Shown here one piece after another: positions 24,434 to 41,352 of a stretch of 61,292 nucleotides of DNA (positions within the stretch are counted from its first letter, which is position 1; each line of letters starts with the position of its first letter). The DNA is from Gammaproteobacteria bacterium. Its GTDB lineage: Bacteria; Pseudomonadota; Gammaproteobacteria; Thiotrichales; Thiotrichaceae. Under the pieces are notes generated by a model. That model was given only the letters and a program-made list of their open reading frames with translations. It searched no databases and had not been told where the DNA came from. The stretch spans positions 1 through 61,292 of the forward strand of contig JAHJJD010000080.1 in assembly GCA_018822845.1 (NCBI GenBank). Reading direction: 5' to 3'. Made by a program: the position numbers and the translations under genes.

Positions 24434-25726
24434 TTAGAAGAATACATCCTGCGTGAAATTGTTGTACCAGCTATAAGCGTACTGCACGTCGATCAGGCGT
24501 TCCTCGTCAGCCGCAGCCAACGGGGACATGCCACCGGAATCAGGCACGGCCTCAATCGACTTGCCATCTGACGACAGCCGATAAATACCGACGATGGAAA
24601 TCGCGTAATCATCCCCCACCAGACTATAGCAACCATTGGAGAAGGAAGTCCTGCCGGGTTCACGCCCGTTCAGCAAGGCAGCTACCGCCAGCGCGCACGC
24701 CTTCGCCTCGGAATTGGCCGCAAAGCCCGACTTCGGCAATGGGTTAGCCGTACAGGCATCGCCAATCACATGAATATTTGGGTGCAGGGTCGATTCAAAA
24801 CTGGATAACGCCACCGGGCACCAGCCACTGGCGTCCGTCAGGCCAGCGCTGAAAGCCAGTACGCCCGCTTTCTGGGCAGGCACGATATTCAGCACATCTG
24901 CTGCCACACTTTCACCACCCGCCGTCGTCACTGTTTTACTGGCGGCATCCAGCCTGACCACGGCATTTTCACCGCCGGAAACCCAGTCCAGCATCGCGTC
25001 ATTGCTGCCATAACCGTACAGCTTCATCCAGCCTTCCATAAACAGCGGCTGCTTGGCAAAACTGCTTTTGGGATCAAGGATCAACACCTTGCTGTTCGGC
25101 TTGTGCTGTTTGAAATAGCTGGCAACCTGACTGGCGCGTTCATACGGCGCGGGCGGGCAGCGGTAAGGGTTTGGCGGTGCTACCAGCACATAGGTACCGC
25201 CATTGGGCATGGCTTCCAGCTGGGAACGCAGGAGGGTGGTTTGCTCACCCGCTTTCCACGCATGAGGAATATCCTGGGTAACTTCCGCGCTGTAACCTTC
25301 AATGGTTTCGTAGCGGTAATCAATGCCGGGGGAAACGATGCAGCGGTCGTAACTGAAATCACCTGCGGAAGTCTTTACCACACGTGCATCGGCGTCAATT
25401 GCAGTCACTTCCGCCTGCACCACGTTGACGCCACGTTTCTGCAAGCCTGCGTAGCCGAAACGCAATGAATCCAGCGTGCGCCCGCCACCCAGCACTTCGT
25501 TGCTCATGTAACAGGTGTAGTAATACGGGTTACGCTCAATCAGGGTAACGTTGATGCCCGGGTCGGCCAGCTTCAGGTATTTGGCGGCGGTTGCTCCCCC
25601 GGTGCCACCACCGATGATGACCACATTGGCGCTCGCCCCCCAGCTGCGGGCCGGAATGCCGGACATCAGCAACAGCCCCCCGGCACCAAGGGTTTTCAGA
25701 AAATGTCTGCGGTTCAGTTGTGTCAT
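24434..25726 (-). CDS. fccB: Sulfide dehydrogenase flavoprotein subunit (FccB/SoxF type)
   Basis: This 430-residue periplasmic flavoprotein has a Tat signal (RRHFLK, 6-11). The FAD-binding motif VIIGGGTGGATAAKY is at about 36-50. The covalent-FAD cysteine is Cys72 (YYTCYMSNEV), and the redox disulfide cysteines lie in YRCPPAPYER (about 190) and GDACTANPLPKSG (about 325). The C-terminal VQYAYSWYNNF end matches the Allochromatium FccB closely. The family oxidises sulfide to sulfur/polysulfide and passes electrons to a c-type cytochrome. No fccA gene is adjacent; the cotranscribed partners are a DUF1501 protein and a giant haem protein. It is the last gene of that operon, 12 bases after the DUF1501 gene. 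Confidence 0.93.
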   Translation of the reverse strand: MTQLNRRHFLKTLGAGGLLLMSGIPARSWGASANVVIIGGGTGGATAAKYLKLADPGINVTLIERNPYYYTCYMSNEVLGGGRTLDSLRFGYAGLQKRGVNVVQAEVTAIDADARVVKTSAGDFSYDRCIVSPGIDYRYETIEGYSAEVTQDIPHAWKAGEQTTLLRSQLEAMPNGGTYVLVAPPNPYRCPPAPYERASQVASYFKQHKPNSKVLILDPKSSFAKQPLFMEGWMKLYGYGSNDAMLDWVSGGENAVVRLDAASKTVTTAGGESVAADVLNIVPAQKAGVLAFSAGLTDASGWCPVALSSFESTLHPNIHVIGDACTANPLPKSGFAANSEAKACALAVAALLNGREPGRTSFSNGCYSLVGDDYAISIVGIYRLSSDGKSIEAVPDSGGMSPLAAADEERLIDVQYAYSWYNNFTQDVFF

Positions 25727-25738
25727 GACACGAGCTTC

Positions 25739-27022
25739 CTACACCGTGATGCCGCTGGAAACGGCGGGGTTGAACAGGGCCATCGGTTCGGCCTTGAGAT
25801 CGTAACGTTGTGCCAGCGCGTGGCTGTCGATACCCAGCAGCTTGCGCAATTCGGACTGCACATGGCGCGGTTGTAGCTGTACGCCGGTTTCACTCAGTTG
25901 CAGGGTATCCGGGTTGATCGCGCGCTTTTCGTGCACGGGGCCGCTGATACCGGCGATACGGTTAGCCCACGGCGCGTTTTTCATCATCACGATGTCGCTG
26001 CCCAGCGACCAGTGATCCTTACCATTACCGGCGTTGTATTCCGGCGTGCGGCCTACGTCCGATGTGACGTGTACGATCAGGCGGTCGGCAATACCCATGC
26101 TTTCCGCTTTCGTCCACAGGTAATCCAGCAGGCGGGTGGTGTTCACCAATGCATTGGCATGGTTCGCATCATGGTTGCCGTGGGTGTCGAAACCACCCGT
26201 GCCAAAACTGCTGGTAGCCGTCATCCCGGCGGCGGCCAGCGTCAGGAACATATGCAGTTCGCGGATTCCCCCACGGCTCTGGCCAGCCAAATCCTTGCTA
26301 TCGAGGGTGGCGGGCAAAACACTTCCCAGCGTATTCACGTCGCCGGAACCGGCATGGGCGCGTTGCAGTTCGGCCAGTTTGGCCTGCCAGCGGGGCGTAT
26401 TGTTTTGCTGCCCCATTTGCGCCTGCAAACGCTCTTCCTGAAAACGTTTGAGAATGCCCATGTGCGAATCAGCGTAATAACTGCGGGTGCTGTCGTAGAA
26501 ATTGGGGTTGGACAGCGTGCGCAGCAGGGTTTCATCCGGTAACAAGGTAAATGGCATGAGGCCAACCGATTCATCAAAGCCACCATTGCGCACGAACGGC
26601 ATGGGCACATTTGGTGCAGCGACTGCGGCATACAACTCGTTCAGCGACGGAAAACCTTCCACCAGGTTGCCGGTATTGCGGTTACGCGCAGCGGCATCAT
26701 GACCATTGGTCTGGATGTCGATGCCATTGATGACCAGCATGTACGAGTAGTACTTGTTGAAGAATGCCGCATTCTCCGCCATCGGGGCATACAGCAGGTT
26801 ACCGGCTTCCCCTGCTGTCCGGGTATTTGCCCAGCGGTTGATCAGCGGGTTATTACGCGGGTCGGAAAACGAACTGTGATCCCAGCCGCCCCCGGTATGC
26901 AGGGTCAGCAATACCTTGCCGGTATGCATGCTGCTGGCAGCCTGCGCCCTGCCGCTTGCCCACGGAAGTGAAGCCGCAAGCCCGACTGCGCCTATCGTTT
27001 TCAGAAAGTTGCGTCTGTTCAT
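25739..27022 (-). CDS. Tat-exported DUF1501 family protein
   Basis: This 427-residue protein starts with a Tat signal (NRRNFLKT, 2-9, cleavage after AQA near 28). The mature part opens LLTLHTGGGWDHSSF and contains GFDTHGNHDANHA and HVTSDVGRTPEYN, the features of the DUF1501 family, which has an alkaline-phosphatase/sulfatase-like fold. The enzymatic role of the family is unknown. In planctomycetes DUF1501 genes sit beside large cytochrome-c-domain proteins, and the same pairing is seen here with the 3567-residue gene 21 bases upstream. Confidence 0.85.
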   Translation of the reverse strand: MNRRNFLKTIGAVGLAASLPWASGRAQAASSMHTGKVLLTLHTGGGWDHSSFSDPRNNPLINRWANTRTAGEAGNLLYAPMAENAAFFNKYYSYMLVINGIDIQTNGHDAAARNRNTGNLVEGFPSLNELYAAVAAPNVPMPFVRNGGFDESVGLMPFTLLPDETLLRTLSNPNFYDSTRSYYADSHMGILKRFQEERLQAQMGQQNNTPRWQAKLAELQRAHAGSGDVNTLGSVLPATLDSKDLAGQSRGGIRELHMFLTLAAAGMTATSSFGTGGFDTHGNHDANHANALVNTTRLLDYLWTKAESMGIADRLIVHVTSDVGRTPEYNAGNGKDHWSLGSDIVMMKNAPWANRIAGISGPVHEKRAINPDTLQLSETGVQLQPRHVQSELRKLLGIDSHALAQRYDLKAEPMALFNPAVSSGITV

Positions 27023-27043
27023 GTCTGACTGTCCTCACTCACC

Positions 27044-30000
27044 TTATTCATACAGGAAGCGCGCATCGGTCAACAGGTACATCATGACGATGCTCCATGC
27101 CCGCTTGGTACGTTGCGGATCTTCCCGGTCGCTATAGAGGCGGCAGGCCGTGCTGCCTTCACCGCTGGCATCCGCCTGTACTTCGCTGAACAGACGGTAG
27201 GTACGGTCAATTTCCTCGCTATCCAGCGCCAATTCTTCGTTCAGCAGGTGTTTGTGCAGGAACTGGATGTTGGCGCGGATGCGTTTTTCACCCGTGGTCA
27301 TGTAATCGCTGCCTGCCGCAACCACCCGCAGGTAGGCGTCATCCACGAAGGCGTCATTGTTCGGATGAGACCCCAGATTGCGCCCCTGCATGTTGAAACG
27401 AATGACACGGGTATTGGCAGGCAGGGTAATAGCGGAAGACAGCACCTGCCATTCGCCACGCACATTGCTGAGCGCAGGCGCTGCGCTGATTTCATTGCCG
27501 CTGGCGTCACGGAAACTCAGGTAAACGCTGGCTTCGTCATTATTGGTCGACCAGGCGCGCAGGGCCGCGCCGTAAATGGCGCGCGCCTGCCCACTGTCGA
27601 CCTGCCCCGCCCAACTGGTGACATCCACATCCTGATACAAGGTCGCCAGATTGCTCTGGTTTTTACAGATGCCGCCCGGATTGAATATGGCGGAGCCTGC
27701 ATGGATGGAAGGCCCGCCGTCACAGCCTGGAGCACCGGAGAGGATACGGGCAGTACCCTGCTCCAGCGTCCAGCCGGTCATGCCCTCTTCCGCGCCCGGA
27801 TTCAGCAGCATGTTGGCCTCACCCGCACCGATTTCTTCCAGCGTTGGCGTATCGCCTGCTTCCACGAAGCCGAGTAGCCTGCGCTCACCCGCCGCAAGTT
27901 TGAAATCGCTGTAGACGGCATTACAACTGAGTTCGATCGCCATGCGCTCCGGAATCTTGCTCATCAGCGTATTCATTTCGGTGTTTGGCGTCTTTTGCAG
28001 GCTGCCACCATCGAAACCACCGTAGAACAGACCCATGCGGTCGCTCCAGGCACGATCCGGCGTAAACGGACGCCATTCCGTACCCAGCAGGGATGTAAGC
28101 TTACCGTTGATTTCTTCCGGCGTCAGCAGACGGGCGATGCCCATATCCGGTACGGCCAGCTTGCCCGCCTCGTCCAGATAGGCTGCATCGGCGCGGAACA
28201 GCGGGCTGGCGATCATCCCCACCAGCAAGTCCTTGACGTTCCACGCACCACGTCCGTGATCCTGCTGGAACTGGCTGGCAAGCGTGCTCAGCAGCGCATC
28301 CTGTTCGTTGAAGGCAGCCATTTTCTCTGCATAACCCTCAGCTGCCGGATCGACCGGCGCGGCCAACGGTTCACGCTTGAACAGGGTGCGATACCAGAAA
28401 TAAACCCCACCCTTGGCAAATCGCTGGTCTTCCGTCAGGTGCTTGGCCAGCCATTGCAGACTGTCTTGTAGCCCCTGATCCACCGCCACATTCTGCGCAG
28501 GCGTTTTCAGGGTCATGAATACGCTATCAATGTAGGCATCCAGATAAGGATCAGCCCACCTATAGGTAGAACGTGCGCCACGCATGTTGAAGCGCAAGGT
28601 GTACGTGCCTTGCGGCACTGCCTGCTCCGCTGTCTTGTTGCCCCAGGTCCAGCCAATGGTATCGAGCAGGATCGGGCTTTCACCCAAAGCAGCGCCATCC
28701 GCCGCCAGGAAGCTGACCCAGACAGATGGAATGTCGCCGTTGCCTTTGGTTCTCAGGTACGCACCGAAGTTGACCGATGCCTTGCCCTGATCCACAACCT
28801 CGCTATGGCTGGAAATATCAATATCCTGATACAACCAGCTTTCATCGACTTTCTGGTCACACAAACCCATCATGAACAGGGAGCTACCGGCTTTCGGATC
28901 GTACGTTACCCGGTTACAGGATGCCTTGTTGGTCGCCACTGCTGCACCGGTTTTGACATTCCAGCCAGCCAGACCAGACTCGGCAGATGGATTTTCCAGC
29001 AAATTAGCGGTTGTCGCCCAGGTTTCCTCGCCATAATTACCGAAGCCACCCGGCATCAGCTTGCCGTTGAAGCCCGGCATCAGCATGTCACGGTACCAGG
29101 TGTCGCCCTTGTGGAACCATGGCTGCTCCAGATGATTCAGCGGATAACCGGAAGACTTGTAGGAACGCGCCAGGGAATCCTTGTCCCCACTGGTTCCGTT
29201 GAAGTTCTGGAAGTAGCGCGCCTCATTGCCCCAGTTTTTGAAGGCACCAGCGACCGGATCCATAACCGTATGGCAAACCATACAGTTCGGGTTCTCCATG
29301 GTCGGCACGCGGAAGCTGCCATTGCCGCTGTCATTCAGCGGGCGTTGGGCCAGTGCTTCAATATCCAGCCCCATGAACTGCTTGTAGACATTGGCTGAAC
29401 GGTGGCGATTACGGTTGGTATCCGTGGTGGGGAAACGTGACAGCCAGGCGTTGGTGGTCAACACCCCGGCATGCGGGAATGGCTTGTCCGGCATACGCGC
29501 AGACAATTGCGGAATGCGTGCCGGGCGCAGCTCATTCACATCATCCGGATTGCTGAAGTTCTCCAGCGTCTGTGCGCCCAATGCCTTCGCCAACGGTGGG
29601 TTCAGCACGGTGTAATCTGCCGTCAGAATATCAGTCCACGGACGATCCTTGCCCACGATGTATTCCATCAGGAAGACCGGTTCCTTGCGGATGGTGTCAT
29701 TGACGATATTCTTTTCCGCAACTGTCAGACCTGCCTGTGCCGGGAAGTCTTCTTCACGGATGCCGTTGTTGCTGTTACCCCGTGCTGCGCCGTTACTGAG
29801 GAACACCTCGTGCCCGGCACGGTAGACAAACTGGTTCAAGGCTCCATCCGCATCCAGCATGGCGCGCAAGGTTGTACGGAAATCCTCTTCCGAATTCACT
29901 GCGGCGATTTCAGCCTCGGTCGGTACGCGGTTCAACAGCAGGATGGCAGCCTTGCGCAGGGTAGATTTGTAATCCAGCAGTTGCATGCCTTCCGGCGCAA

Positions 30001-33000
30001 CGTCTTCGCTGCTCAGGTTGGCCTGCGCTTCGTCACTCACGAGCGAACGGTTCCCGGCAGCATCAACCGCCACAACCGTATAACGATACCCTCCTGCGGC
30101 CAGTCCGGTATCCGTAAAGCTGTTGTAGGTAGTTTGCCCGATGAGTACCCCATCACGGTAGATTTCGTAGTAGCTAACGCCCCAGTCATCGGAAGAATCC
30201 ATCCAGGTCAGGGTAACGCCAGTCGGCGTATAGGCGGCCACTTCCACAAAATCCGGCTGCTCAGGTAGTGCCGTATCCTGTTGTGCACTGGCGTAGAACT
30301 CGGTCAGGGCAGTCAGGGAGCCTTCACCTTCTGCCGCCAGCATTGCGCTCAGCTGGTTTGCCATGCCGGTTGGGGCCTGGCTGCGCTGGCTGGCGAAATC
30401 ATCAAGCGTTGCCAACAGATAGGGCTTCCATTGACCCGCCAGACGCACACCAGTCAGACTGTCGCTACGCCCGCTGGCAGTATGGCAGGATGCGCAATAT
30501 TGCTGGTGCAGGGTCTGGCCACGTTCAACCAGGGCGGCATCAGTCGTCTGCTCATTAACCACGAACGGCTGCTCCGCGAAGAACTTTGCCAGACGGTCGA
30601 TTTCTTCCGCATTGTAACCAGTCGCAATGCGTCCCATCACAGTGGATGCGCGCTTGCCGGTCTGGTAATCACGCATCAGGGTAGACAGGTAATGGCTGCC
30701 CATACCAGCGATGCTCGGGGTAGCCGGGCCGCTGCTGACGCCGTTGCTTCCATGACAACTGGCGCAGTTGGCGACCATGGATTCAGTCAGCACTGCCGGG
30801 CCAGTTCCCTCGTTGGCGGAGGCGTCGCAGCTTTGCGGATCGGCCAGTTGATCCAGCAATCCGGAGAACAGATTCAAGCCTTCCGAACCTGTCGGCAGAA
30901 CAGCGCCACCACCGTGGGCAACCTGCCCACTGGCTTTCGCCACAATGGCGTCCTTGCCCAGCGCCTGCACCAGGCCATCCAGCACATTCAGGTTGCGCTC
31001 ACTGGCGTCCGCGCCATTGGTGAGAATGAAACGGCTGTTTTGCCCCATGCCACCCGCGATATGGCAGCTGGCACAGTTGCTGACCCGGCTTTCCACATGC
31101 TGTTTGTAATACAGTTGGGTCGTTTCACAAATCGTGGAAAGGCTGGCTTCAACCATGCTAGCGGGCAGGGAAGCATTGCCTGCCGAATCCAGCGCCTTGA
31201 CCGTGTAGGTATAGGTATTGCCAGCCTGCACATCGGTATCGGTATAGGCCGCGCGGTTACTCAGTGCCAGCAGCCGCCCGTCACGCAGGATACGGTACTG
31301 GGCAACCCCCACATTATCAGCGGATGCATCCCAGCTCAGCACCACCTGCATCCGCGCTGTATCGGCACTTGCCGTCAGATTGGCAGGTGCATCCGGAGCC
31401 GTTGTATCACCGCTGGTGAGTGAAACCGGCTCACTTGGTGCAGACACATTCCCGGCAACGTCGACCGCAACAACCTGATAGGAGTAGGCAGTATCCTGCT
31501 GCACGCTGTTGTCGGTAAAACTGCTGGCAGCACTCTGCCCGACTTGCAGCCCGTCACGCAGGATGCGGTATGCAGTAATGCCCACATTGTCGCTGGCAGG
31601 CTGCCAACTCAGGCTAACCTGCCCCTTGGCCGCAACCACCTGGATATTCTGCGGAACAGATGGCGCAGTACCATCCTGGGTATAAGCAGTCAACGGCACA
31701 GATGGCACGGAAGCATTGCCCGCAGCATCCAGTGCAATCACGCTGTAATGGTGGCGGCTGTAACTGCCAAGCCCGCCATCAACAAAGCTTGCCGCAGTGC
31801 TTTCACCAGCCAGCAAACCGTCACGCCAGATCTGGTATTTAACCACACCGACATTATCACTGGCGGGCTGCCAACCCAGACTGATGGAATCTGTACCGAC
31901 ACTGGTCACAGCCACAGCTAGCGGCATGCCCGGTGCTTCAGTATCCGCCACCGTAACGCCGAGTTTGGCTGGCAGGGATTCGCGCCCGTTTGGCCACAAG
32001 GCTGTTACGCCATATTCATATGTATGGGTAACAAGCACCGTATTGTCGGTGTAGGCCGCGCCCGTCACCTCGCCCAGCAGTGTTCCGTCACGATAAACCC
32101 GGTAAGCGCTGGCCAGGGACTGCGCATCCCACGTCAGGTTAACGGCTGTCTGGCTGATGCTGGCTGCCTTCAGATTGGCTGGCGTCTGTGGCTGCGCCAG
32201 TTGGTCTGCCTTCCAGCTCATTTCGGCAACAGCACCGCCACCGGCTTCGTAGTACTCGGCCTTGATGGCATGGGTTCCACCAGTGAGGAAAATACGCCTG
32301 GTGTAATTGGTCGGCCCTTGCGGCTTCCAGGAATCGATCAGATTGGCTCCATCCACCCATAGGCGGAAACCATCATCGGTGCGTACACTGAAGGTATATT
32401 CACCCTCGGCCAAGTCGAAATTGCCAACCCAGCGGGTTGAGAAATTGTCACCCGGTACATTCGGGTTCGGCGAATTGTAGCCCCAGTCGAACTGGATGGC
32501 GTCATCCAGACGGGTATCCAGAGGCGCACCCTGCAAGCCGGTTCCATTGTAGAAAGCGGTACAGAACTGACCATTTGGAATACTGCTATCGCAATCCGGA
32601 GCTTTTTCCCACGAAACCTTGGCCAGCGCATTACCCCAGCTTTCACGGTACTCCACCTTGACCAGGTGCTTGCCTGCCGTGATACGGCGTAGTGTGCGCA
32701 GTTTGCCGTACCATGGCCATTGCGGGTTCCAGCCATCCAGCACGAGTTCGCCATCTACCCAAATGCGGGCACCATCATCAAGCTCGGTAACGAAACGGTA
32801 CAGGCCGTCTTCAAAGCTGATATTGCCCAGCCAGCGCACCGAATAACTGCTATTCCAGACCATTGGATCAGGCTGGGTATCCGCCCAGTCATAGGCAATT
32901 TCAGGCGCTGTTTTCAGCACCTGCCGTGGGATACCACCCAGGTTGGTATTATCGAAATACATCATGCAGAAAGCATCATCAGGCGCGGCAGCAGCGCAGC

Positions 33001-36000
33001 CCTCAACCTGCTCCCAGCCCAGTTGCAGGGCAGCCGCGCCATAGCGTTCACGGTATTCCACCTTGACCACATGCTGGCCTGCCTCAATGAAGGGTACGGC
33101 CTGCGCCTTGCCTGGCCAGCGCCAGTCAGAATTCCACTGATCAATCACCTGCTGGCCATCGACCCAGACGCGCACGCCATCATCCATTGCACCGCTGAAA
33201 CGGTAATAAGCGGATTCAGGGAAGTTGAAGCGCCCTTCCCAACGCGCCGAGAACATTTCGCTGTTCAATCCGTGCATTGGACGGTCAGTACCCCAATCGA
33301 AATTCAGCGCATCCGTCAGCTGGGTACGTTTCGCCGCACCCGCCAGCGCATCGCCAGCGAAGAAAGAGCCGCAGAACGCATTGTCGGGCACGCCTTCACA
33401 TTCATGCCGCTGCTCCCAGAAAAATTTGGCACGCGCCCAGCCGCCGAACTCGCGCATTTCCACCTTGATACGATGCCTGCCTGCGCTCAACGGCATATCC
33501 TGGAAATGCTCCTGGGCGTCGTTACTGTCCCACAAATCCAGCACTACCTGCCCATCCACCCAGACACGCATACGGTCATCGGCCTTGGCGACGAAACGGT
33601 AATCACCTGCCGCAAAATCAAAGTCGCCAACCCAGCGCGCCGAGAAATTGTCGGCGCTGACCCCGGCAACCGGAGCCTTGTCCTGCCACTCGAAATTGAT
33701 GGCCGGATCGTTCTGGATCCTGGCCGGATCGCCGGTCAAACTGTTATTATTGAAATATTCCGCACAATACTCGCCCGTTGGGATGGAGGCACAGCCGATA
33801 TTCTTCACCCAGTCCAGCTTGGCAACCGCGCCGCCACTGCGTTCATAGTAATCCATACGCACACGGTGCTTGCCTTCCGTAACGGGAATGGTTTGCTGGT
33901 AAGTCGTCGCCCCCTGATCTTTCCACGCATCAATCAGTAACTGGTCATCCAGCCACACGCGCACGCCATCATCCGCTGTCGCGCGGAAGGTGTGCCGCCC
34001 TTCGGAAAAATCGAAATCCCCTACCCAACTGACCGCGAAGTTATCTTTCAGATAACCCGGCAAGGCTGCCGCGCTGCCCCAGTCGAAATTGATGGCATCA
34101 TCCACGCGGGTATCCACTGGTGCTGCCGTCAGATCCTTGCCATCATGGAACGTGGCGCAGAATTTACCTTCAGGCACGCCGCCGCAGTCCGGTGCTTTCT
34201 CCCAGAAAACCCTGGCGGTGGCTGTGCCGTATGATTCCCGGTACTCCACCTTGATGTCATGCAGACCAGCAGTCATTTGCTTCAGCTTGCGGTGCTTGCC
34301 GTAATATGGCGAAACGGGCGTCCAGGCATCAAACAGCAATTCACCATCCACCCAAATGCGTGCGCCATCATCCATTTCAGTGGCGAAACGGTACAAACTA
34401 TCCTCAAAACGAACCTTGCCAACCCAGCGGGCAGAGAAATGGTCGCCCAGCACCATGGGATCAGGTGTATTGCCTTCCCACGCATAGTTGATGAAAGGCG
34501 AAGTCTTCAACGCCTGACGTGGATTTCCGGACAAGTCCTCGTTATTGAACAGTGTCAGGCAGAAAGCATCTTCCGGCGCTTCAGCACCACATCCTTCCAC
34601 CTGCCGCCAGCCCAGCCTGACGTAGGCCGCGCCATAACGCTCACGGTATTCCACCTTGACGACATGCTTGCCAGCTTCAATGTAGGGAACTGCCTGCGCC
34701 TTGCCCGGCCAGCGCCAGTCGGAACTCCATTGGTCTACTACCAGTTCGTCATCAACCCAGACACGCACACCGTCATCCATTTCCCCAAGGAAACGGTAGT
34801 AAGCGGATTCAGGAAAATCGAAGTTACCAACCCAGCGCGCCGAGAACATATCACTTTTGACGCCATGCATGGGGCGCTCGGTTCCCCAGTCGAAATCAAT
34901 GGCGGTCGCGGATTGGGTACGTTTCACCTCGCCTTCAAGCTCTGTTCCATCGAAGAAGGAACCACAGAAAGCATTGTCAGGAACACCTTCACAGTCCTGT
35001 CGCTGTTCCCAGAATACAATGGCACGCGCATTGCCACCGAACTCCCGCATTTCCACCTTGATACGGTGCTTGCCCGCAGGCAGGTTCATGTCATGGAAGT
35101 TTTCCCGGTAATCATTAACATCCCACAGGTCGATGATCAGCTCATCATCGACCCAGACGCGCATCCGGTCATCCACACTGGCGACGAAACGGTAATTACC
35201 CACCAGATCGAAATCACCCTGCCAGCGAACCGAGAAATTATCGGCATTCACACCTTCCACTGGCGCGCCATCTTTCCAATCGAAGTTAATGGCCGGATCA
35301 TTCTGAATTTTGGCAGGATTATCCAGCAGCTCTTTGTTATTGAAGTATTCCGCGCAAAACGCATTCTCAGGAATGGCTTCGCAACTGATGTTCTTGCTCC
35401 AGTCCAGTTGCGCCACCGCGCCACCGCCACGCTCGTAATATTCCATCTTGACGCGGTGCAGCCCCGCCGGAATCAGCACGCTTTTACGGTAAGTCGTGGG
35501 AGCCTGATCTTTCCAGGCATCAACCAGCAACTCATCATCCAGCCAGACCCGCACGCCATCATCCGCCGTGGTGACGAAAGTATAAGCGCCCTCCTCGAAA
35601 CTAAAATCCCCCACCCAACGGGCGGAGAAATTATCAGCGGGCGACTCATCCAGCGGCTTACCGTTACCCCAGTTGAAGTTGATTTTGTCGGTATGCTGGA
35701 TGGCGGCGAAATCACCCGCCAGCGTCTTGTTGGCAAAGAACTGGCCACAGAATTCACCTGTCGGCACCACCGAACAATCATCCGGTTCGCTGGAAGGCAG
35801 TTCGTTGGTCAGGCGTTGCGCCCCCAACTCAACTGCCGCCTCGCCTCCCAGGTCGGTATATTCCAGACGCAACGCATGCACGCCAGACAGCGGCGCATCG
35901 CCCATCAGGATACGGGAAGCAGTGACCTCCGTAGCGGTGCCATCCAGCAATAACTCTCCGTCCACCCACAGCTTCACCGCGTCATCCGCTTTTACCGCGA

Positions 36001-37747
36001 ACTGATAGACTCCTGCCGGAAAATCGTAGCTGACGTTGTATTGGGCAGTGAAATGATCCTTCCCAACGCCTGCATCCGGGCCACCGGATTTCCAGTTTTT
36101 GGTAAACAGTATTGACGCCACACCTGCCGAATCCAGGACAGGAGCAGTCTTTTCCAAGATCAGGCTAGCCTGGACTGAAGCAGCATCACCCGCATAATAA
36201 GCCACGCATTCCTGCCCGGTCGCCACTGGCAAAGCGCATCCCATGACACTGGTATCAGCACTTTCCGTCAACCAGAAACCTTGAGTGGAAACAGGACCAT
36301 CCAGCGTCTCCATCCGTGCCGCCGGTACGGTTACCCGCACATCGCCAACCTTGAACATGGCCGGTTGCTGCTGACGAGGCACACTATCAATAGCCGTGTA
36401 ATCATCCAGTTGCGGGGTAAAACGCCATACCTTACCGGTTTCCCCATTTGCCGCAGACAACACAAATGGCTGTTGCCAATCCACCAGGTTGTCTGCTGCC
36501 GGTATAGCCGCTGCCACCCCCAGATGCTGGTCAACCGACTGTAAAGTCTTGTCCAGCAAGGATTCTTCTGCCGCTGGCGCATTCTGATTCCGGTAAATAA
36601 ACTGACGCGCGCCACTCAGGGTCGCATGAATCACCATTTCCTGATACAGATCGCTGCCTGTCAGCAAAGCCGACATGCCTGCGCTTGCATCAGGCTGATT
36701 CTTGCCTTCCAGCAGCGGAAACAACGGTTCGCCGGAAGCCAGCGCCATGCTACGCAAACGGTTGGTTTCATAGCGGAAAGCATTGAAGGCAGTGGGCGCA
36801 TAAGGTTTGCCATCAATCTGCAAACCATCAACCGGCAAGGTACCTGAAAGGCCGAGACCTTGCGCATTACCTGCGAGTGCTCCTGTTGTATTGCCGAAAT
36901 CGCTGTCGGGAATACTGAAATCTGTTGTCTGCTGGTAGAAATCACGCGCGCTCACTTGCGCCTGCGGGAAGCTGAGCGCCAGCGGTTGATAAAATGCCTG
37001 TTGCAGGTAGCCAGCCATGCGCTGTTTCATCACCGCATTCCACTGCTGCTGGCGTTGTGAAGCCAGCTCATCACCTGCATACATGGAAAGCAGGTCGGCG
37101 AAACCCAGTTGGGTTTGCAGGTCGGCAAAGCGGGAATCGGCTTCAATCCCTGCCAGATATTCAGTCAGTGAACCGGAAGCTTCCGCCAGTGTTTTCAATT
37201 CGTCCGCACTCAGGGAAAGCCCCTGGTAGTCCAGCATGACGAAATCCACCTCACCGCCAGCCTGACGGTAAAGCGTAAAAAAGTCGTTTACCCGCTGACG
37301 CACGATGCTTGCACCCTGCTCCAGCCAGATACCCCGATCCGGCAGCAGGGAACCATCTGCGGTCATAACCTGTGCGGTATTATCATCGGTATCTGTAACG
37401 GTTACGCTTGAACCGGCAATAGCCATGAAATCAAGGTCAACGTTAAGCATTACCCGTTTGCCTTGCGGCATCAGTGAGGTGGCGCTCAGTGCCGCCTGCA
37501 CAGCAGTATTTACACCTGCTGCATCATTCAGCTCTTGCAGATGGACAACGTGTAACGGGGTAACTTTATCGAGGGTAGCGAAAGGGGAACGTACTGAGAA
37601 AGCGTGGCTACCGAGAGAGTTTATCTCTGTTGGAGAAGCGTTAGCACTGGTCAGGAATAGCGCACATGAAAACAGGCCGTTAAAAACAAGACGACGAAAG
37701 CCGCCATTCGCACATAACACGCGAACGCCTTTGCCACACATACCCAT
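27044..37747 (-). CDS. Giant exported PA14/FnIII multihaem protein with planctomycete-cytochrome-like C-terminus
   Basis: One uninterrupted frame of 3567 residues. The start at 37747 has GAGGGA 4 bases upstream. Order: signal peptide (1-37, ANA end); an unrecognised, possibly TIM-barrel-like domain (about 45-430); a divergent PA14 module (about 513-645); nine PA14 modules (about 660-1858); four FnIII-like modules (about 1860-2205); CxxCH haem motifs at 2225, 2328 and 2418; a fifth FnIII (about 2500-2590); a DUF1592/DUF1588-like region with a fourth CxxCH at 2822; a jelly-roll-like module (about 2915-3080); a further DUF-like stretch; a second jelly-roll-like module (about 3312-3470); and a terminal part. 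It is probably located at the cell surface or in the periplasm, binding a polymer through PA14 and carrying electrons through four c-type haems; this is inference. No sortase or autotransporter anchor is visible. It leads the operon with the DUF1501 and fccB genes. Confidence 0.85.
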   Translation of the reverse strand: MGMCGKGVRVLCANGGFRRLVFNGLFSCALFLTSANASPTEINSLGSHAFSVRSPFATLDKVTPLHVVHLQELNDAAGVNTAVQAALSATSLMPQGKRVMLNVDLDFMAIAGSSVTVTDTDDNTAQVMTADGSLLPDRGIWLEQGASIVRQRVNDFFTLYRQAGGEVDFVMLDYQGLSLSADELKTLAEASGSLTEYLAGIEADSRFADLQTQLGFADLLSMYAGDELASQRQQQWNAVMKQRMAGYLQQAFYQPLALSFPQAQVSARDFYQQTTDFSIPDSDFGNTTGALAGNAQGLGLSGTLPVDGLQIDGKPYAPTAFNAFRYETNRLRSMALASGEPLFPLLEGKNQPDASAGMSALLTGSDLYQEMVIHATLSGARQFIYRNQNAPAAEESLLDKTLQSVDQHLGVAAAIPAADNLVDWQQPFVLSAANGETGKVWRFTPQLDDYTAIDSVPRQQQPAMFKVGDVRVTVPAARMETLDGPVSTQGFWLTESADTSVMGCALPVATGQECVAYYAGDAASVQASLILEKTAPVLDSAGVASILFTKNWKSGGPDAGVGKDHFTAQYNVSYDFPAGVYQFAVKADDAVKLWVDGELLLDGTATEVTASRILMGDAPLSGVHALRLEYTDLGGEAAVELGAQRLTNELPSSEPDDCSVVPTGEFCGQFFANKTLAGDFAAIQHTDKINFNWGNGKPLDESPADNFSARWVGDFSFEEGAYTFVTTADDGVRVWLDDELLVDAWKDQAPTTYRKSVLIPAGLHRVKMEYYERGGGAVAQLDWSKNISCEAIPENAFCAEYFNNKELLDNPAKIQNDPAINFDWKDGAPVEGVNADNFSVRWQGDFDLVGNYRFVASVDDRMRVWVDDELIIDLWDVNDYRENFHDMNLPAGKHRIKVEMREFGGNARAIVFWEQRQDCEGVPDNAFCGSFFDGTELEGEVKRTQSATAIDFDWGTERPMHGVKSDMFSARWVGNFDFPESAYYRFLGEMDDGVRVWVDDELVVDQWSSDWRWPGKAQAVPYIEAGKHVVKVEYRERYGAAYVRLGWRQVEGCGAEAPEDAFCLTLFNNEDLSGNPRQALKTSPFINYAWEGNTPDPMVLGDHFSARWVGKVRFEDSLYRFATEMDDGARIWVDGELLFDAWTPVSPYYGKHRKLKQMTAGLHDIKVEYRESYGTATARVFWEKAPDCGGVPEGKFCATFHDGKDLTAAPVDTRVDDAINFDWGSAAALPGYLKDNFAVSWVGDFDFSEGRHTFRATADDGVRVWLDDQLLIDAWKDQGATTYQQTIPVTEGKHRVRMDYYERSGGAVAKLDWVKNIGCASIPTGEYCAEYFNNNSLTGDPARIQNDPAINFEWQDKAPVAGVSADNFSARWVGDFDFAAGDYRFVAKADDRMRVWVDGQVVLDLWDSNDAQEHFQDMPLSAGRHRIKVEMREFGGWARAKFFWEQRHECEGVPDNAFCGSFFAGDALAGAAKRTQLTDALNFDWGTDRPMHGLNSEMFSARWEGRFNFPESAYYRFSGAMDDGVRVWVDGQQVIDQWNSDWRWPGKAQAVPFIEAGQHVVKVEYRERYGAAALQLGWEQVEGCAAAAPDDAFCMMYFDNTNLGGIPRQVLKTAPEIAYDWADTQPDPMVWNSSYSVRWLGNISFEDGLYRFVTELDDGARIWVDGELVLDGWNPQWPWYGKLRTLRRITAGKHLVKVEYRESWGNALAKVSWEKAPDCDSSIPNGQFCTAFYNGTGLQGAPLDTRLDDAIQFDWGYNSPNPNVPGDNFSTRWVGNFDLAEGEYTFSVRTDDGFRLWVDGANLIDSWKPQGPTNYTRRIFLTGGTHAIKAEYYEAGGGAVAEMSWKADQLAQPQTPANLKAASISQTAVNLTWDAQSLASAYRVYRDGTLLGEVTGAAYTDNTVLVTHTYEYGVTALWPNGRESLPAKLGVTVADTEAPGMPLAVAVTSVGTDSISLGWQPASDNVGVVKYQIWRDGLLAGESTAASFVDGGLGSYSRHHYSVIALDAAGNASVPSVPLTAYTQDGTAPSVPQNIQVVAAKGQVSLSWQPASDNVGITAYRILRDGLQVGQSAASSFTDNSVQQDTAYSYQVVAVDVAGNVSAPSEPVSLTSGDTTAPDAPANLTASADTARMQVVLSWDASADNVGVAQYRILRDGRLLALSNRAAYTDTDVQAGNTYTYTVKALDSAGNASLPASMVEASLSTICETTQLYYKQHVESRVSNCASCHIAGGMGQNSRFILTNGADASERNLNVLDGLVQALGKDAIVAKASGQVAHGGGAVLPTGSEGLNLFSGLLDQLADPQSCDASANEGTGPAVLTESMVANCASCHGSNGVSSGPATPSIAGMGSHYLSTLMRDYQTGKRASTVMGRIATGYNAEEIDRLAKFFAEQPFVVNEQTTDAALVERGQTLHQQYCASCHTASGRSDSLTGVRLAGQWKPYLLATLDDFASQRSQAPTGMANQLSAMLAAEGEGSLTALTEFYASAQQDTALPEQPDFVEVAAYTPTGVTLTWMDSSDDWGVSYYEIYRDGVLIGQTTYNSFTDTGLAAGGYRYTVVAVDAAGNRSLVSDEAQANLSSEDVAPEGMQLLDYKSTLRKAAILLLNRVPTEAEIAAVNSEEDFRTTLRAMLDADGALNQFVYRAGHEVFLSNGAARGNSNNGIREEDFPAQAGLTVAEKNIVNDTIRKEPVFLMEYIVGKDRPWTDILTADYTVLNPPLAKALGAQTLENFSNPDDVNELRPARIPQLSARMPDKPFPHAGVLTTNAWLSRFPTTDTNRNRHRSANVYKQFMGLDIEALAQRPLNDSGNGSFRVPTMENPNCMVCHTVMDPVAGAFKNWGNEARYFQNFNGTSGDKDSLARSYKSSGYPLNHLEQPWFHKGDTWYRDMLMPGFNGKLMPGGFGNYGEETWATTANLLENPSAESGLAGWNVKTGAAVATNKASCNRVTYDPKAGSSLFMMGLCDQKVDESWLYQDIDISSHSEVVDQGKASVNFGAYLRTKGNGDIPSVWVSFLAADGAALGESPILLDTIGWTWGNKTAEQAVPQGTYTLRFNMRGARSTYRWADPYLDAYIDSVFMTLKTPAQNVAVDQGLQDSLQWLAKHLTEDQRFAKGGVYFWYRTLFKREPLAAPVDPAAEGYAEKMAAFNEQDALLSTLASQFQQDHGRGAWNVKDLLVGMIASPLFRADAAYLDEAGKLAVPDMGIARLLTPEEINGKLTSLLGTEWRPFTPDRAWSDRMGLFYGGFDGGSLQKTPNTEMNTLMSKIPERMAIELSCNAVYSDFKLAAGERRLLGFVEAGDTPTLEEIGAGEANMLLNPGAEEGMTGWTLEQGTARILSGAPGCDGGPSIHAGSAIFNPGGICKNQSNLATLYQDVDVTSWAGQVDSGQARAIYGAALRAWSTNNDEASVYLSFRDASGNEISAAPALSNVRGEWQVLSSAITLPANTRVIRFNMQGRNLGSHPNNDAFVDDAYLRVVAAGSDYMTTGEKRIRANIQFLHKHLLNEELALDSEEIDRTYRLFSEVQADASGEGSTACRLYSDREDPQRTKRAWSIVMMYLLTDARFLYE
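32174..35770 (-). repeat. Nine tandem PA14 modules in an A-B-C-D-A-B-C-D-A superduplication
   Basis: Module-start cysteines lie at residues 667, 798, 928, 1063, 1197, 1328, 1459, 1594 and 1729 of the giant protein. Adjacent modules differ, but every fourth matches best: A (667, 1197, 1729) shares YYER-GGAVA or its variants; B (798, 1328) shares AEYFNN and VEMREFGG; C (928, 1459) shares WPGKAQAVP; D (1063, 1594) shares EMDDGARIW or its variant. The period is 530-532 residues (about 1.59 kb). All modules retain the adjacent-Asp pair (DDG or DDR) that binds calcium in PA14 lectins. Confidence 0.85.
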
Positions 37748-38901: not shown

Positions 38902-39885
38902 TTAACGGGCCGGGTACAAACGATGGTTCAAGGTAATGACCGATAGCAACAACAAGGCTGCGACCAGATTGTGCGCTGTCGCCACAGGCAATGGCAAGGC
39001 CAGCACGACATTCAGGATACCCAGCGTTACCTGCACCAACAGCAGCAACAGCACAGTTACAGGTGCGCCCCCCAGCAGCTGCACACGCTTTCTTAACAGC
39101 CAGACAGTGAGCATTCCCACATACAGGAAAACGATCAGCGCACCCAAACGGTGTGTCATGTGAATGGCAGTACGCGCAGGATTTTCCAGAATGCCAAACT
39201 CATAATTGACGCCTTCCAGCCATTCAAACGCAAAGCCGCTGGCGAAATCGGCAGCAGGCCATAAGGAACCGTGACAATCAGGAAAACTGGTTCCACACGC
39301 AATCGCCGCGTAATGTGTGCTAGTCCACCCACCCAGAAAAATCTGTGCAACCAATAGCAACAAGGCAACCAGCGCCAGTGCCCGCACCCTTGGCAAAGCA
39401 TCCAGGTACAGGGTATTGGGGCGGGAAGCATGCTGATTGAGCCACAGCAGCCACAATAACGACAAGGTGGTAAAACCGCCCAACAGGTGGGCAGTCACAA
39501 TCATCGGACTTAGCAGCAAAGTCACCGTCCACATACCCAGCGCAGCCTGAAAAATCACGGTACATAACAACAAGAGTGGCAGCAGGACGCCCCGCCCGAG
39601 TTGGCGTCTGAAAAATACGCTCAGCAGGAAAATACCCAGAATGGCCAGACCCAAACTCCCTGCGGCATAGCGGTGAATCATTTCCGCCCACGCTTTTTCC
39701 GGCTCCAGCACCCGCCCGAACTGGCTGTGGTCAACCGTTTCCGGCACGCTCAGATGCCCGTAACACCCCGGCCAGTCAGGGCAGCCCAGACCTGCATCCG
39801 ACAGACGGGTGTACGCGCCCAGCACAATCACTACCAACGCCAGTAGCACCGCAGCAGAAAGCAGGAAAGAGTAAAACCTTTTCAT
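38902..39885 (-). CDS. ctaA: Haem A synthase (CtaA/COX15)
   Basis: This 327-residue membrane protein has eight hydrophobic segments and converts haem O to haem A for the oxidase encoded divergently at 40210-44378. Conserved histidines for haem binding are visible in MIHRYAAGSLGL, TAHLLGGFTTL, MTHRLGALIVF and TAHNLVAALLL, two pairs as in the family. The N-terminal TRLSDAGLGCPDWPGCYG motif is diagnostic, and an acidic/Cys loop (SFPDCHGSLWP) follows later. It is separated from coxB by a 324-base divergent region. Confidence 0.93.
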   Translation of the reverse strand: MKRFYSFLLSAAVLLALVVIVLGAYTRLSDAGLGCPDWPGCYGHLSVPETVDHSQFGRVLEPEKAWAEMIHRYAAGSLGLAILGIFLLSVFFRRQLGRGVLLPLLLLCTVIFQAALGMWTVTLLLSPMIVTAHLLGGFTTLSLLWLLWLNQHASRPNTLYLDALPRVRALALVALLLLVAQIFLGGWTSTHYAAIACGTSFPDCHGSLWPAADFASGFAFEWLEGVNYEFGILENPARTAIHMTHRLGALIVFLYVGMLTVWLLRKRVQLLGGAPVTVLLLLLVQVTLGILNVVLALPLPVATAHNLVAALLLLSVITLNHRLYPAR

Positions 39886-40209
39886 TCATGCATACTCAGG
39901 TAAAAACATTTACAAACACATGATACACATTCCCGGCCACATCAGGTGAACCATACACCGTAACAATGACCACGACTTGTAATTCTTATAACCAAAACCA
40001 TCCACCATTACAAACCCCAAAAGCATGTTTTTATCAATGTCATTATCAGGATGGACGTGACATCCGGTAGGATAGCCGCAGATGAAAAACAATTAAAACA
40101 AGTGGATGAAATATCTGACCGGACAGAAAACAACTGAATAAAAAATAGCCTGCCGGTTAGTGATGATAAAAATTCTTGCTGATTTTTATTAATCACAGAG
40201 GCATCGCCA
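39886..40209. other. Divergent promoter region between ctaA and coxB
   Basis: These 324 AT-rich bases hold no credible gene. They should carry promoters for ctaA-murB and for coxBA-ctaG-coxC. I see no sigma-54 site, no terminator and no strong operator palindrome. Confidence 0.5.
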
Positions 40210-41340
40210 ATGGAAAGGAGAACCATCGTAGCAGGGTCGCTGCCGATGCTGTTAACACCACTGACAGCACTGGCCGACTGGGAACTGAACATGCCGAGGG
40301 GCGTTACCGACCTCAGCGCAGAAATCTACGGCTTGCACATGTTGACGTTGTGGATATGTGTCGGGATCGGAATCATCGTGTTTGGCGCAATGGCCTATTC
40401 CATCAGCCATCACCGCAAAGACAAAGGCCATAAAGCCGCCACTTTCCACGAAAGCACCACCGCCGAAATCATCTGGACCATCATCCCCGCCATCATTCTC
40501 GTTTCCCTCGCCATCCCCGCCGCCCAGGCCCTGATCAAAATTGAAGACGCCAGCAACGCCGACCTGACCATCAAGGTCACTGGCTATCAATGGAAGTGGG
40601 AATATGAATACCCCGAAGAAGGCATCCGCTTCTTCAGCAGCCTTGACAGTAAAAGCCGGGAAGCCAGTACGCTCGGCTCCGGCATTGATCCTGCCAGCAT
40701 CGACCACTACCTGCGCGAGGTAGACAACCCTGTGGTCATCCCGGTTGGCAGGAAAGTCCGCTTCCTGTTTACCGCCAATGATGTCATCCACGCCTGGTGG
40801 GTGCCTGATCTCGCCATCAAGAAAGACGCCATTCCCGGCTTTGTCAACGACATGTGGGCCAAGGTCAACCAGCCCGGCGTTTACCGTGGCCAGTGCGCCG
40901 AATTGTGCGGCAAGGATCACGGTTTCATGCCCATCAAGGTCATCGCGCTGGAAGACGCCGATTACCAGCAATGGGTGGCGGAACAAAAGCAGCAAGCCGC
41001 AGCTGCAAGTGCTGCCAGCGACCGGGAATGGAGCAGGGATGAACTGCTTACCCAGGGTCAGAAAGTTTTCACAGCATCCTGTGCCGCCTGCCATCAGGCA
41101 ACTGGCCTGGGTATTCCAGGCGTATTCCCTGCCCTGAAAGGCAGCAAGATCGCGACAGGCGACCTCAACGCCCATATCGGTATTGTCCTGCATGGCAAAA
41201 CCGGCACAACGATGCAGGCTTTCGGCAAGCAACTCAGCGACGCCGACATTGCCGCCGTCATTACCTATGAACGTAACGCTTTTGGCAACAACATGGGCGA
41301 TATAGTCCAGCCTGCCGCCGTCAAGGCAGCACGCCAATAA
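40210..41340 (+). CDS. coxB: Cytochrome c oxidase subunit II with fused cytochrome c domain
   Basis: This 376-residue protein has a signal/hydrophobic N-terminus (to about 22) and two membrane helices (about 45-65 and 88-106). The CuA domain has its ligands in HAWWVPD and CAELCGKDHGFM (C-x3-C-x3-H). A C-terminal cytochrome c domain (from about 275) contains CAACH, so this is the caa3 type, accepting electrons through its own haem c. It is the first gene of coxB-coxA-ctaG-coxC and is divergent from ctaA. Confidence 0.95.
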   Translation: MERRTIVAGSLPMLLTPLTALADWELNMPRGVTDLSAEIYGLHMLTLWICVGIGIIVFGAMAYSISHHRKDKGHKAATFHESTTAEIIWTIIPAIILVSLAIPAAQALIKIEDASNADLTIKVTGYQWKWEYEYPEEGIRFFSSLDSKSREASTLGSGIDPASIDHYLREVDNPVVIPVGRKVRFLFTANDVIHAWWVPDLAIKKDAIPGFVNDMWAKVNQPGVYRGQCAELCGKDHGFMPIKVIALEDADYQQWVAEQKQQAAAASAASDREWSRDELLTQGQKVFTASCAACHQATGLGIPGVFPALKGSKIATGDLNAHIGIVLHGKTGTTMQAFGKQLSDADIAAVITYERNAFGNNMGDIVQPAAVKAARQ

Positions 41341-41352
41341 AGGAGTGGAATC

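What the first reader, a model, noticed from the sequence alone, without database searches (positions are those of the whole stretch)
24434..37747. Operon of a giant PA14/FnIII multihaem protein, a DUF1501 protein and a sulfide dehydrogenase flavoprotein
Three exported proteins are encoded with gaps of 21 and 12 bases. The first is a 3567-residue protein with ten PA14-like, five FnIII-like and two jelly-roll-like modules plus four CxxCH motifs. The second (DUF1501) is of a family that accompanies large cytochrome-domain proteins in planctomycetes. The third is a complete FccB/SoxF flavoprotein. I know of no described system joining these. Hypothesis: a surface- or sheath-bound electron-transfer complex that couples sulfide (or another reductant) oxidation to a polymer- or sulfur-binding scaffold.
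Basis: partly seen in the sequence, partly recalled or inferred. Interest (0 to 1): 0.85.

Follow-up and report, generated by a model that had tools for sequence, protein, structure and literature searches.

The report
Sulfide-oxidising enzyme built into giant scaffold
A filamentous sulfur bacterium appears to have built the cytochrome half of its sulfide-oxidising enzyme into a giant, probably sugar-binding exported protein, which offers a clue to what an uncharacterised class of bacterial electron-carrying scaffold proteins may be wired to.

Summary
In detail: three exported proteins lie 21 and 12 bases apart. Residues 2308-2489 of the 3567-aa protein are a complete FccA, the dihaem subunit of flavocytochrome c sulfide dehydrogenase (FCSD; PDB 3vrd_A E 8.5e-41, 1fcd_C 3e-39). 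The third gene is FccB, so this is an FCSD whose cytochrome subunit sits inside a PA14/FnIII scaffold ending in a divergent planctomycete-type DUF1592/DUF1588 haem module. The same genome has a parallel operon: CBM2-FnIII-FccA-X183-DUF1587...DUF1585, then DUF1552, then FccB. In the 63 held genomes of the family I found 24 fused FccA loci in 16 genomes. Each one not cut by a contig end has DUF1501 or DUF1552, then FccB. DUF1588 and DUF1552 matches above cut-off occur there only in these operons. The nearest known proteins are Cbp2D and TERTU_2913/3803, whose electron partners are unknown. Vibrio plasmids carry a related scaffold-DUF1501 pair with a sub-threshold sugar-dehydrogenase match, a hint of swappable input enzymes. 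Location, electron acceptor and DUF1501 function remain inferred.

The parts
27044..37747 (-). giant FccA-containing scaffold protein, 3567 aa
   Evidence: single open frame; homologous open frames of 2731-3703 aa in 9 other family genomes (the 2731-aa one is cut by its contig end) and of 3220 aa in another family
37637..37747 (-). Sec-type signal peptide, residues about 1-37
   Evidence: hydrophobic N-terminus read from the translation; not tested with a predictor
36233..37636 (-). N-terminal domain, residues 38-505, no Pfam match; model weakly resembles TIM-barrel glycoside hydrolases
32201..36223 (-). ten tandem PA14 domains, residues 509-1849
   Evidence: Pfam, coordinates; copy number 6-11 among the 11 giants
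31154..32194 (-). four FnIII domains, residues 1852-2198
30848..31135 (-). first haem region (CxxCH at residue 2225), about residues 2205-2300
   Evidence: CxxCH present in all 11 giants; no PDB relative found
30281..30826 (-). FccA domain, residues 2308-2489, two CxxCH (2328, 2418)
   Evidence: 3vrd_A E 8.5e-41, 1fcd_C E 3.1e-39; both CxxCH and two Met in likely ligand places invariant in 24 fused FccA
30029..30268 (-). fifth FnIII domain, residues 2494-2573
29228..29713 (-). DUF1592/DUF1588 (PSD4/PSCyt3)-like haem module, residues 2679-2840, CxxCH at 2822
   Evidence: all 10 aligned giant C-termini hit both Pfam models at E <= 0.5; hhalign to the class-2 module probability 88.7
28478..29032 (-). 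jelly-roll-like module 1, residues 2906-3090
   Evidence: homologous to module 2
27293..27826 (-). jelly-roll-like module 2, residues 3308-3485
   Evidence: homologous to module 1
25739..27022 (-). DUF1501 protein with Tat signal
   Evidence: PF07394 47.2 bits, PF10518 TAT_signal 23.3 bits, both over cut-off
24434..25726 (-). FccB, FCSD flavoprotein subunit with RR signal motif
   Evidence: 1fcd_A E 1.3e-154; PF21706 and PF09242; TAT_signal 18.1 bits, below its cut-off of 22.7; cysteines 72, 190, 366

Best explanation
The operon encodes a flavocytochrome c sulfide dehydrogenase whose FccA (dihaem) subunit is a domain of a giant exported scaffold. FccB, probably exported by Tat, docks on that domain, oxidises sulfide at its FAD/disulfide site and passes electrons to the two FccA haems. 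The PA14 array (CBM2 modules in the sister operon) tethers the complex to a polysaccharide, most likely the filament's own sheath, holdfast or biofilm matrix. Electrons may then pass to the further haem and the DUF1588-type haem of the C-terminal module, and from there to an unidentified acceptor, with the DUF1501/DUF1552 protein as a dedicated partner of that module. Shown: FccA and FccB identity, fusion, operon conservation, four haem motifs. Inferred: docking, sulfide activity, polysaccharide binding, location, relay order, acceptor, DUF1501 role.
For: FccA domain: 3vrd_A and 1fcd_C; haem motifs and two Met invariant in 24 fused domains. FccB: 1fcd_A E 1.3e-154; the three cysteines kept in 25 of 25 FccB from fused operons. 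Own genome: no stand-alone FccA at E <= 1e-12; in the genus 9 of the 11 genomes with FccA at that threshold have it only fused. Linkage: 10 of 10 giants with intact downstream sequence have DUF1501 then FccB, and 15 of 15 class-2 loci not cut before FccB have DUF1552 then FccB (window). Gaps of 10-27 and 4-13 bases in 10 giant operons, with starts set by script from the Tat motif. DUF1588: 22 of 22 listed matches in 63 genomes, 19 of them over cut-off, lie in fused-FccA frames. DUF1552: 14 of 14 over cut-off are in class-2 operons. Four CxxCH in 10 of 10 giants not cut, in 14 of 14 class-2 proteins scanned and in L173. The single-haem domain of the own class-2 protein is X183-like (8q1v E 1.9e-10, 7b21 2.2e-5). 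Trees: fused FccA split from stand-alone FccA at 100/98; giant FccB one clade 100/99.
Against: Nothing shows that the complex leaves the periplasm: no MtrB-type conduit in any of the 16 genus genomes, and the type II secretion test used an unspecific model. PA14 binding to sugar is inferred from family knowledge. The giant's DUF1588 and DUF1592 matches are weak (23.5 and 15.9 bits in the whole-protein scan, below the cut-offs 27 and 23.3). The giant's first haem region matched no solved cytochrome. DUF1501 and DUF1552 are treated here as equivalent partners, but their profiles align only weakly and over the N-terminal part that includes the Tat signal (probability 69.1). Five of 16 genus genomes have no FccA at E <= 1e-12, so the system is dispensable. 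Papers call Thiothrix fccAB a core trait without comment on architecture (passages).
Confidence: 0.72

Rival explanations
1. A periplasmic version: the scaffold stays in the periplasm or around periplasmic sulfur inclusions, holding FCSD where sulfur is deposited, and electrons go to ordinary soluble cytochrome c and the oxidase.
For: FCSD is normally periplasmic (recalled, established knowledge). No MtrB conduit in the genus. PMC5615132 (passages) reports that PSCyt proteins of Verrucomicrobia were predicted to be periplasmic or cytoplasmic. A caa3-type oxidase gene cluster lies beside the operon in the window.
Against: Ten PA14 domains here and CBM2 modules in the sister protein suggest polysaccharide binding; the related Cbp2D is reported from secretomes (PMC8981238 passage). 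The oxidase neighbourhood was not seen in the fetched pieces of relatives.
Confidence: 0.33
2. A polysaccharide-attacking system like the one proposed for Cbp2D: sulfide electrons drive an oxidative polysaccharide-cleaving enzyme (LPMO).
For: Class-2 architecture resembles Cbp2D, and the X183 domain of Cbp2D can reduce LPMOs in vitro (PMC8981238 passages).
Against: AA10 LPMO (PF03067) found in 0 of 63 family genomes. TtX183 domains did not serve an LPMO (PMC10916295 passages).
Confidence: 0.04
3. Pure immobilisation: the extra haems and the DUF1592/1588 module are relics, FccAB works as usual, and the scaffold is only an adhesin.
For: PA14 number varies from 6 to 11 while the rest is constant; the giant's DUF1588-like module is divergent.
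Against: All four CxxCH are kept in the 10 giants not cut, and DUF1501 or DUF1552 is kept in every fused locus whose downstream sequence is held: relics would be lost.
Confidence: 0.18
4. Reverse direction: the scaffold's cytochromes feed electrons to FccAB, which reduces polysulfide or sulfur.
For: Nothing in the sequence fixes the direction of electron flow; the related Vibrio scaffold has its own weak sugar-dehydrogenase-like stretch.
Against: FCSD is known to oxidise sulfide to cytochrome c (recalled); Thiothrix species are reported as sulfide oxidisers (passages).
Confidence: 0.06

Closest known systems
Flavocytochrome c sulfide dehydrogenase FccAB (PDB 1fcd, 3vrd)
   Same: FccB and FccA over nearly their whole mature lengths, haem sites and FCSD cysteines kept, fccA before fccB on one strand
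   Different: FccA is a domain of a 3567-aa modular protein instead of a 174-residue chain, and a DUF1501 gene stands between; of 18 stand-alone loci with a strong FccA match examined in the family, 17 have FccB next to FccA and none matched the DUF1501 or DUF1552 queries
Cbp2D of Cellvibrio japonicus (CBM2-X158/YceI-FN3-X183-DUF1587-X132)
   Same: The sister operon's protein shares CBM2, FnIII, an X183-like haem domain and DUF1587 followed by a CxxCH-bearing C-terminal module
   Different: In place of the YceI quinone-binding input domain it has FccA plus a separate FccB; Cbp2D itself was not compared over its full length here
TERTU_2913 / TERTU_3803 of Teredinibacter turnerae
   Same: Large multi-haem X183/X132 proteins, one with a PQQ-dehydrogenase-like domain pair (PMC10916295 passages)
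   Different: No FccA mentioned in the passages; electron donor and acceptor unknown in that paper
PSCyt/PSD proteins with neighbouring unknown genes (Planctomycetes, Verrucomicrobia)
   Same: PSCyt/PSD modules with binding modules including PA14; [quoted passage not shown]
   Different: No FCSD subunit mentioned in those passages; the giant's module is divergent. That the two unknown families are DUF1501 and DUF1552 is likely (the paper was found by those terms) but the passages do not name them
Vibrio maritimus BH16 and Photobacterium DA100 plasmid scaffolds (L171, L172)
   Same: Large protein with a C-terminus related to the giant's, then DUF1501
   Different: No FccA or FccB match in the pieces; the Vibrio protein has a sub-threshold GSDH match plus CBM96, LamG and GbpA_2

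Membership tests
Flavocytochrome c sulfide dehydrogenase | FccB flavoprotein with FCSD central and flavin-binding domains | tested here: met
   PF21706 158.1 bits, PF09242 76 bits; 1fcd_A E 1.3e-154
Flavocytochrome c sulfide dehydrogenase | FAD-linking cysteine and redox-active cysteine pair in FccB (roles and 1fcd numbering recalled) | tested here: met
   window cysteines 72, 190, 366; kept in 25 of 25 FccB from fused operons
Flavocytochrome c sulfide dehydrogenase | FccA dihaem subunit with two CxxCH and Met ligands (ligand role recalled) | tested here: met
Flavocytochrome c sulfide dehydrogenase | physical FccA-FccB complex with sulfide:cytochrome c activity | not testable with these tools
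   needs protein work
Cbp2D / TERTU type multi-haem proteins (X183-X132) | X183 haem domain | tested here: inconclusive
   met in the own genome's class-2 sister protein; no match for the giant's first haem region
Cbp2D / TERTU type multi-haem proteins (X183-X132) | X132 C-terminal haem domain | not tested
   no X132 model or Cbp2D full sequence at hand; equating X132 with DUF1592/1588/1585 is inference from domain order
PSCyt/PSD (planctomycete-type cytochrome) proteins | DUF1588 with CxxCH next to DUF1592 | tested here: inconclusive
   class-2: far above cut-offs. Giant: 10 of 10 C-termini hit both models at E <= 0.5; the window giant's DUF1588 scores 28.5 bits, over the cut-off of 27, but 23.5 and 24.4 bits, under it,
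PSCyt/PSD (planctomycete-type cytochrome) proteins | adjacent DUF1501 or DUF1552 gene | tested here: met
SoxF-type FccB homologues | flavoprotein of the SoxF branch without an FccA | tested here: not met
   window FccB lies with FccB, split at 100/100 from the two paralogues on C64 that I label SoxF-like (their sox neighbourhood was not checked), has the FAD-linking cysteine they lack and has an FccA in its operon

The most novel reading that the evidence does not exclude
The DUF1592/DUF1588 (X132-like) scaffold plus its DUF1501/DUF1552 partner is a general, polymer-anchored electron-collecting chassis into which different substrate dehydrogenases are plugged: flavocytochrome c sulfide dehydrogenase in Thiothrix-type bacteria, sugar dehydrogenase-like domains in Vibrio and Teredinibacter, a quinone-binding domain in Cellvibrio. 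Thiothrix filaments would thus wire their sheath with a sulfide-oxidising respiratory enzyme, and many planctomycete-type cytochrome proteins of unknown function would be extracellular dehydrogenase relays.
Probability: 0.4. Interest if true: 0.88.

Novelty: new variant of a known kind. Interest (0 to 1): 0.74.

Why it matters
FCSD is a textbook small soluble enzyme (recalled); here its cytochrome subunit is built into a 3567-residue modular protein, in two parallel versions in one genome, and in 9 of the genus's 11 FccA-bearing genomes the fused form is the only FccA found. It also gives a biochemically defined partner to a group of scaffold cytochromes (PSCyt/PSD, X183/X132, with DUF1501 or DUF1552 neighbours) whose functions or electron partners are stated in print to be unknown (PMC10916295, PMC5615132, passages). 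That makes the question testable with an enzyme whose assay exists, in a strain held in a collection (Thiothrix fructosivorans ATCC 49748 carries both operons).

Tried and rejected

Large open frames of 633-698 aa reported for FccA in G077, G325 and G214 looked like FccA-FccB fusions but are separate adjacent frames. G547 (874) and G474 (723) are also ordinary pairs. Other frames of 376-688 aa (G456, G457, G464, G522, G526, G444, G557) were not fetched, and one search did not list all its matches, so fused loci in that family may be undercounted. In some searches the number of candidates scored per genome was capped.

LPMO-donor idea: 0 of 63 genomes with AA10. Mtr conduit: 0 of 16 in the genus, one partial match over cut-off in another genus. 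Type II secretion via PF03934: matches in 62 of 63 genomes, but the control rang in 8 of 14 named genomes including Bacillus subtilis, so it decides nothing. Conserved oxidase neighbourhood: not seen in the fetched pieces of relatives, which are 20 kb or shorter. DUF1501 as a specific marker: rejected, present in 62 of 63 genomes.

Literature searches for a giant or carbohydrate-binding FccA showed none, judged from titles and starts of abstracts in the listings; DUF1501/1552/1592/1588/1800 and PSCyt searches gave no functional assignment in what I read. The library lacks most subscription journals. A recalled report that the Thiothrix fructosivorans sheath is a glucosaminoglucan could not be confirmed.

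Rows dropped: the trees leave out loci without that gene in the piece (L055 and L064 for FccB), the second copies of overlapping pieces (L053/L054), and the stand-alone loci L069 and L071; they were built without G202 and G553. The class-2 FccB group is not well supported (39/0), and in the FccA tree neither the giant nor the class-2 rows form one clade. In one search one of 18 stand-alone FccA loci (L071) had no FccB match in the piece; L045 was cut and not judged; the weaker matches were not fetched. One search's 'small' group includes the two SoxF-like rows.

Full report
What is there. Three minus-strand genes at 37747-24434 encode a 3567-aa exported protein, a 427-aa DUF1501 protein with a Tat signal and a 430-aa FccB, with gaps of 21 and 12 bases. 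The window lies in a 4.0-Mb, 130-contig assembly. Its genus contains Thiothrix fructosivorans: the contig lengths 446480 and 1467533 of G051 equal those of that strain's records.

The missed part. Residues 2308-2489 of the giant are a whole FccA, the dihaem subunit of flavocytochrome c sulfide dehydrogenase (domain limits). A PDB search with residues 2315-2490 returns 3vrd_A (E 8.5e-41) and 1fcd_C (E 3.1e-39) over nearly the whole domain. In an alignment of 24 fused FccA domains both CxxCH and two methionines in the places expected for axial ligands are invariant (the ligand role is recalled). FccB matches 1fcd_A over residues 33-429 (E 1.3e-154), and three cysteines (FAD link and redox pair in 1fcd, roles recalled) are kept in 25 of 25 FccB from fused operons. 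So the operon is an FCSD with its cytochrome subunit inside a scaffold. The genome has no other FccA at E <= 1e-12 except in a second operon; weaker matches include a 207-aa protein at E 4.4e-9.

A parallel operon. On contig C44 a 1568-aa protein (Ig-like, three CBM2, FnIII, FccA, FnIII, single-haem domain, DUF1587, DUF1595, DUF1592, DUF1588, DUF1585) is followed by a DUF1552 protein and an FccB 63% identical to the window's. Its single-haem domain is X183-like (PDB 8q1v E 1.9e-10, 8q1w 6.7e-7, 7b21 of Cbp2D 2.2e-5). The giant's C-terminus is a remote version of the same module: all 10 aligned giant C-termini hit DUF1588 and DUF1592 models at E <= 0.5 and the two profiles align over 161 columns at probability 88.7. 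Thus both proteins carry FccA plus two further haem motifs, with different binding modules: PA14 in one, CBM2 in the other. The order differs: the third haem lies before FccA in the giant and after it in the class-2 protein.

Distribution and linkage. Among the 63 held genomes of the family, which is also the whole order held, 44 have an FccA-like match at E <= 1e-12. Fused FccA make up 24 loci in 16 genomes: 10 giants (frames of 2731-3703 aa, the shortest cut by its contig) and 14 class-2 proteins (1284-1699 aa, plus one cut at 916). In the window's genus 11 of 16 genomes have FccA, and in 9 of these 11 it is only in fused form. With G202 (giant and class-2) and G553 (class-2) from another family the totals are 11 giants and 16 class-2 loci. 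Of the giants 10 have intact downstream sequence, and all 10 have DUF1501 then FccB. All 16 class-2 loci have DUF1552, and all 15 not cut before it have FccB next (and the window itself). Of 18 stand-alone loci with a strong FccA match examined, 17 have FccB adjacent and none matched the DUF1501 or DUF1552 queries. In the 63 genomes all 22 listed DUF1588 matches (19 over cut-off) lie in fused-FccA frames, and all 14 DUF1552 matches over cut-off are those of the class-2 operons, with one further sub-threshold match. DUF1501 by contrast is in 62 of 63 genomes. In an even sample of 369 genomes of the class, fused FccA appear in 3 (G000, G045, G202); in 146 genomes of G202's family, in 2 among the listed matches.

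Evolution. FccA trees separate fused from stand-alone domains at 100/98. FccB from giant operons form one clade (100/99), as do stand-alone FccB (100/99), while the class-2 FccB group is weakly supported (39/0). One early fusion followed by a split into two scaffold types fits, but is not proven; in the FccB tree the giant rows lie nearer to the stand-alone rows than to class-2 at 84/51, which does not favour it. PA14 copy number varies from 6 to 11 while FnIII number and CxxCH number stay fixed in the 10 giants not cut at the C-terminus.

What it works like. The best-studied comparable proteins are Cbp2D of Cellvibrio japonicus and TERTU_2913/3803 of Teredinibacter turnerae, read here as passages only (PMC8981238, PMC10916295, PMC12542752). 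They are large proteins taken to be secreted, with X183 and X132 haem domains, carbohydrate-binding modules in Cbp2D and TERTU_3803, and in Cbp2D a DUF1587. The Teredinibacter paper says the X183 domains likely transfer electrons to or from a partner yet to be identified and that an LPMO is an unlikely one. In this family no genome has an AA10 LPMO (0 of 63). The Verrucomicrobia paper PMC5615132 (passages) reports PSCyt/PSD proteins with binding modules including PA14, next to two families of unknown genes, function unknown. A tblastn of the giant's C-terminus against plasmids found two Vibrionaceae scaffolds (37-38% identity over 17% of the query) that are followed by a DUF1501 gene. The Vibrio one carries GbpA_2, CBM96, LamG, a cytochrome domain and a glucose/sorbosone dehydrogenase match that is below its cut-off (21.9 vs 25 bits, E 1.3e-4), and lies near tatB and tatC. 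This suggests that the scaffold-DUF1501 pair takes different input enzymes; it is suggestive, not shown.

Mechanism proposed. FccB docks on the FccA domain, oxidises sulfide, and the FccA haems receive the electrons (established FCSD chemistry, inferred here by homology). The binding modules hold the enzyme on a polysaccharide; Thiothrix filaments are described as having a mucous sheath (PMC8570282 passage). The two extra haems may relay electrons further. The acceptor is unknown: no MtrB-type conduit is found in the genus, and a caa3-type oxidase cluster is close by in the window but was not seen in the fetched pieces of relatives. The periplasmic alternative is therefore live.

Novelty. FCSD is known and X183/X132-type scaffolds are known; I found no description of the two combined (searches: judged from listings; open-access library only). 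Published Thiothrix genome papers list fccAB as core without remark on architecture in the passages I read. I file it as a new variant of FCSD, with the wider chassis reading as the novel case.

Noticed in passing
window 38902-42939: Oxidase genes (CtaA, COX2 with fused cytochrome c, COX1; caa3-type by my reading) lie about 1-5 kb from the giant operon.
   Followed up: partly
L015 8598-12338 (contig C64 of the own genome): Two SoxF-like FccB paralogues (40-41% identity) flank a 366-aa protein with a weak cytochrome match; both lack the cysteine aligned with the FAD-linking one.
   Followed up: partly
L171 3862-12105 and L172 3973-12133: Vibrio maritimus and Photobacterium plasmids carry a scaffold protein of about 2300 aa (three CxxCH) followed by DUF1501; in Vibrio it lies near tatB and tatC and has a sub-threshold glucose/sorbosone dehydrogenase match.
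   Followed up: partly
L053/L054 and L050/L051: In G050 the two FccA operons are divergent neighbours with about 220 bases between the open frames; in G058 the two FccA domains lie about 17 kb apart on one contig.
   Followed up: no
L091: In Thiothrix fructosivorans the giant operon lies on a record titled plasmid pTfr446 while the class-2 operon is on another contig.
   Followed up: no
L174 6171-8210: A 680-aa open frame with nine CxxCH overlaps the fccA end of an ordinary fccAB pair in G547.
   Followed up: no
window 36233-37636: The giant's N-terminal domain has no Pfam match, is 25-58% identical between the window and nine other giants, and its model weakly resembles TIM-barrel glycoside hydrolases.
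   Followed up: partly
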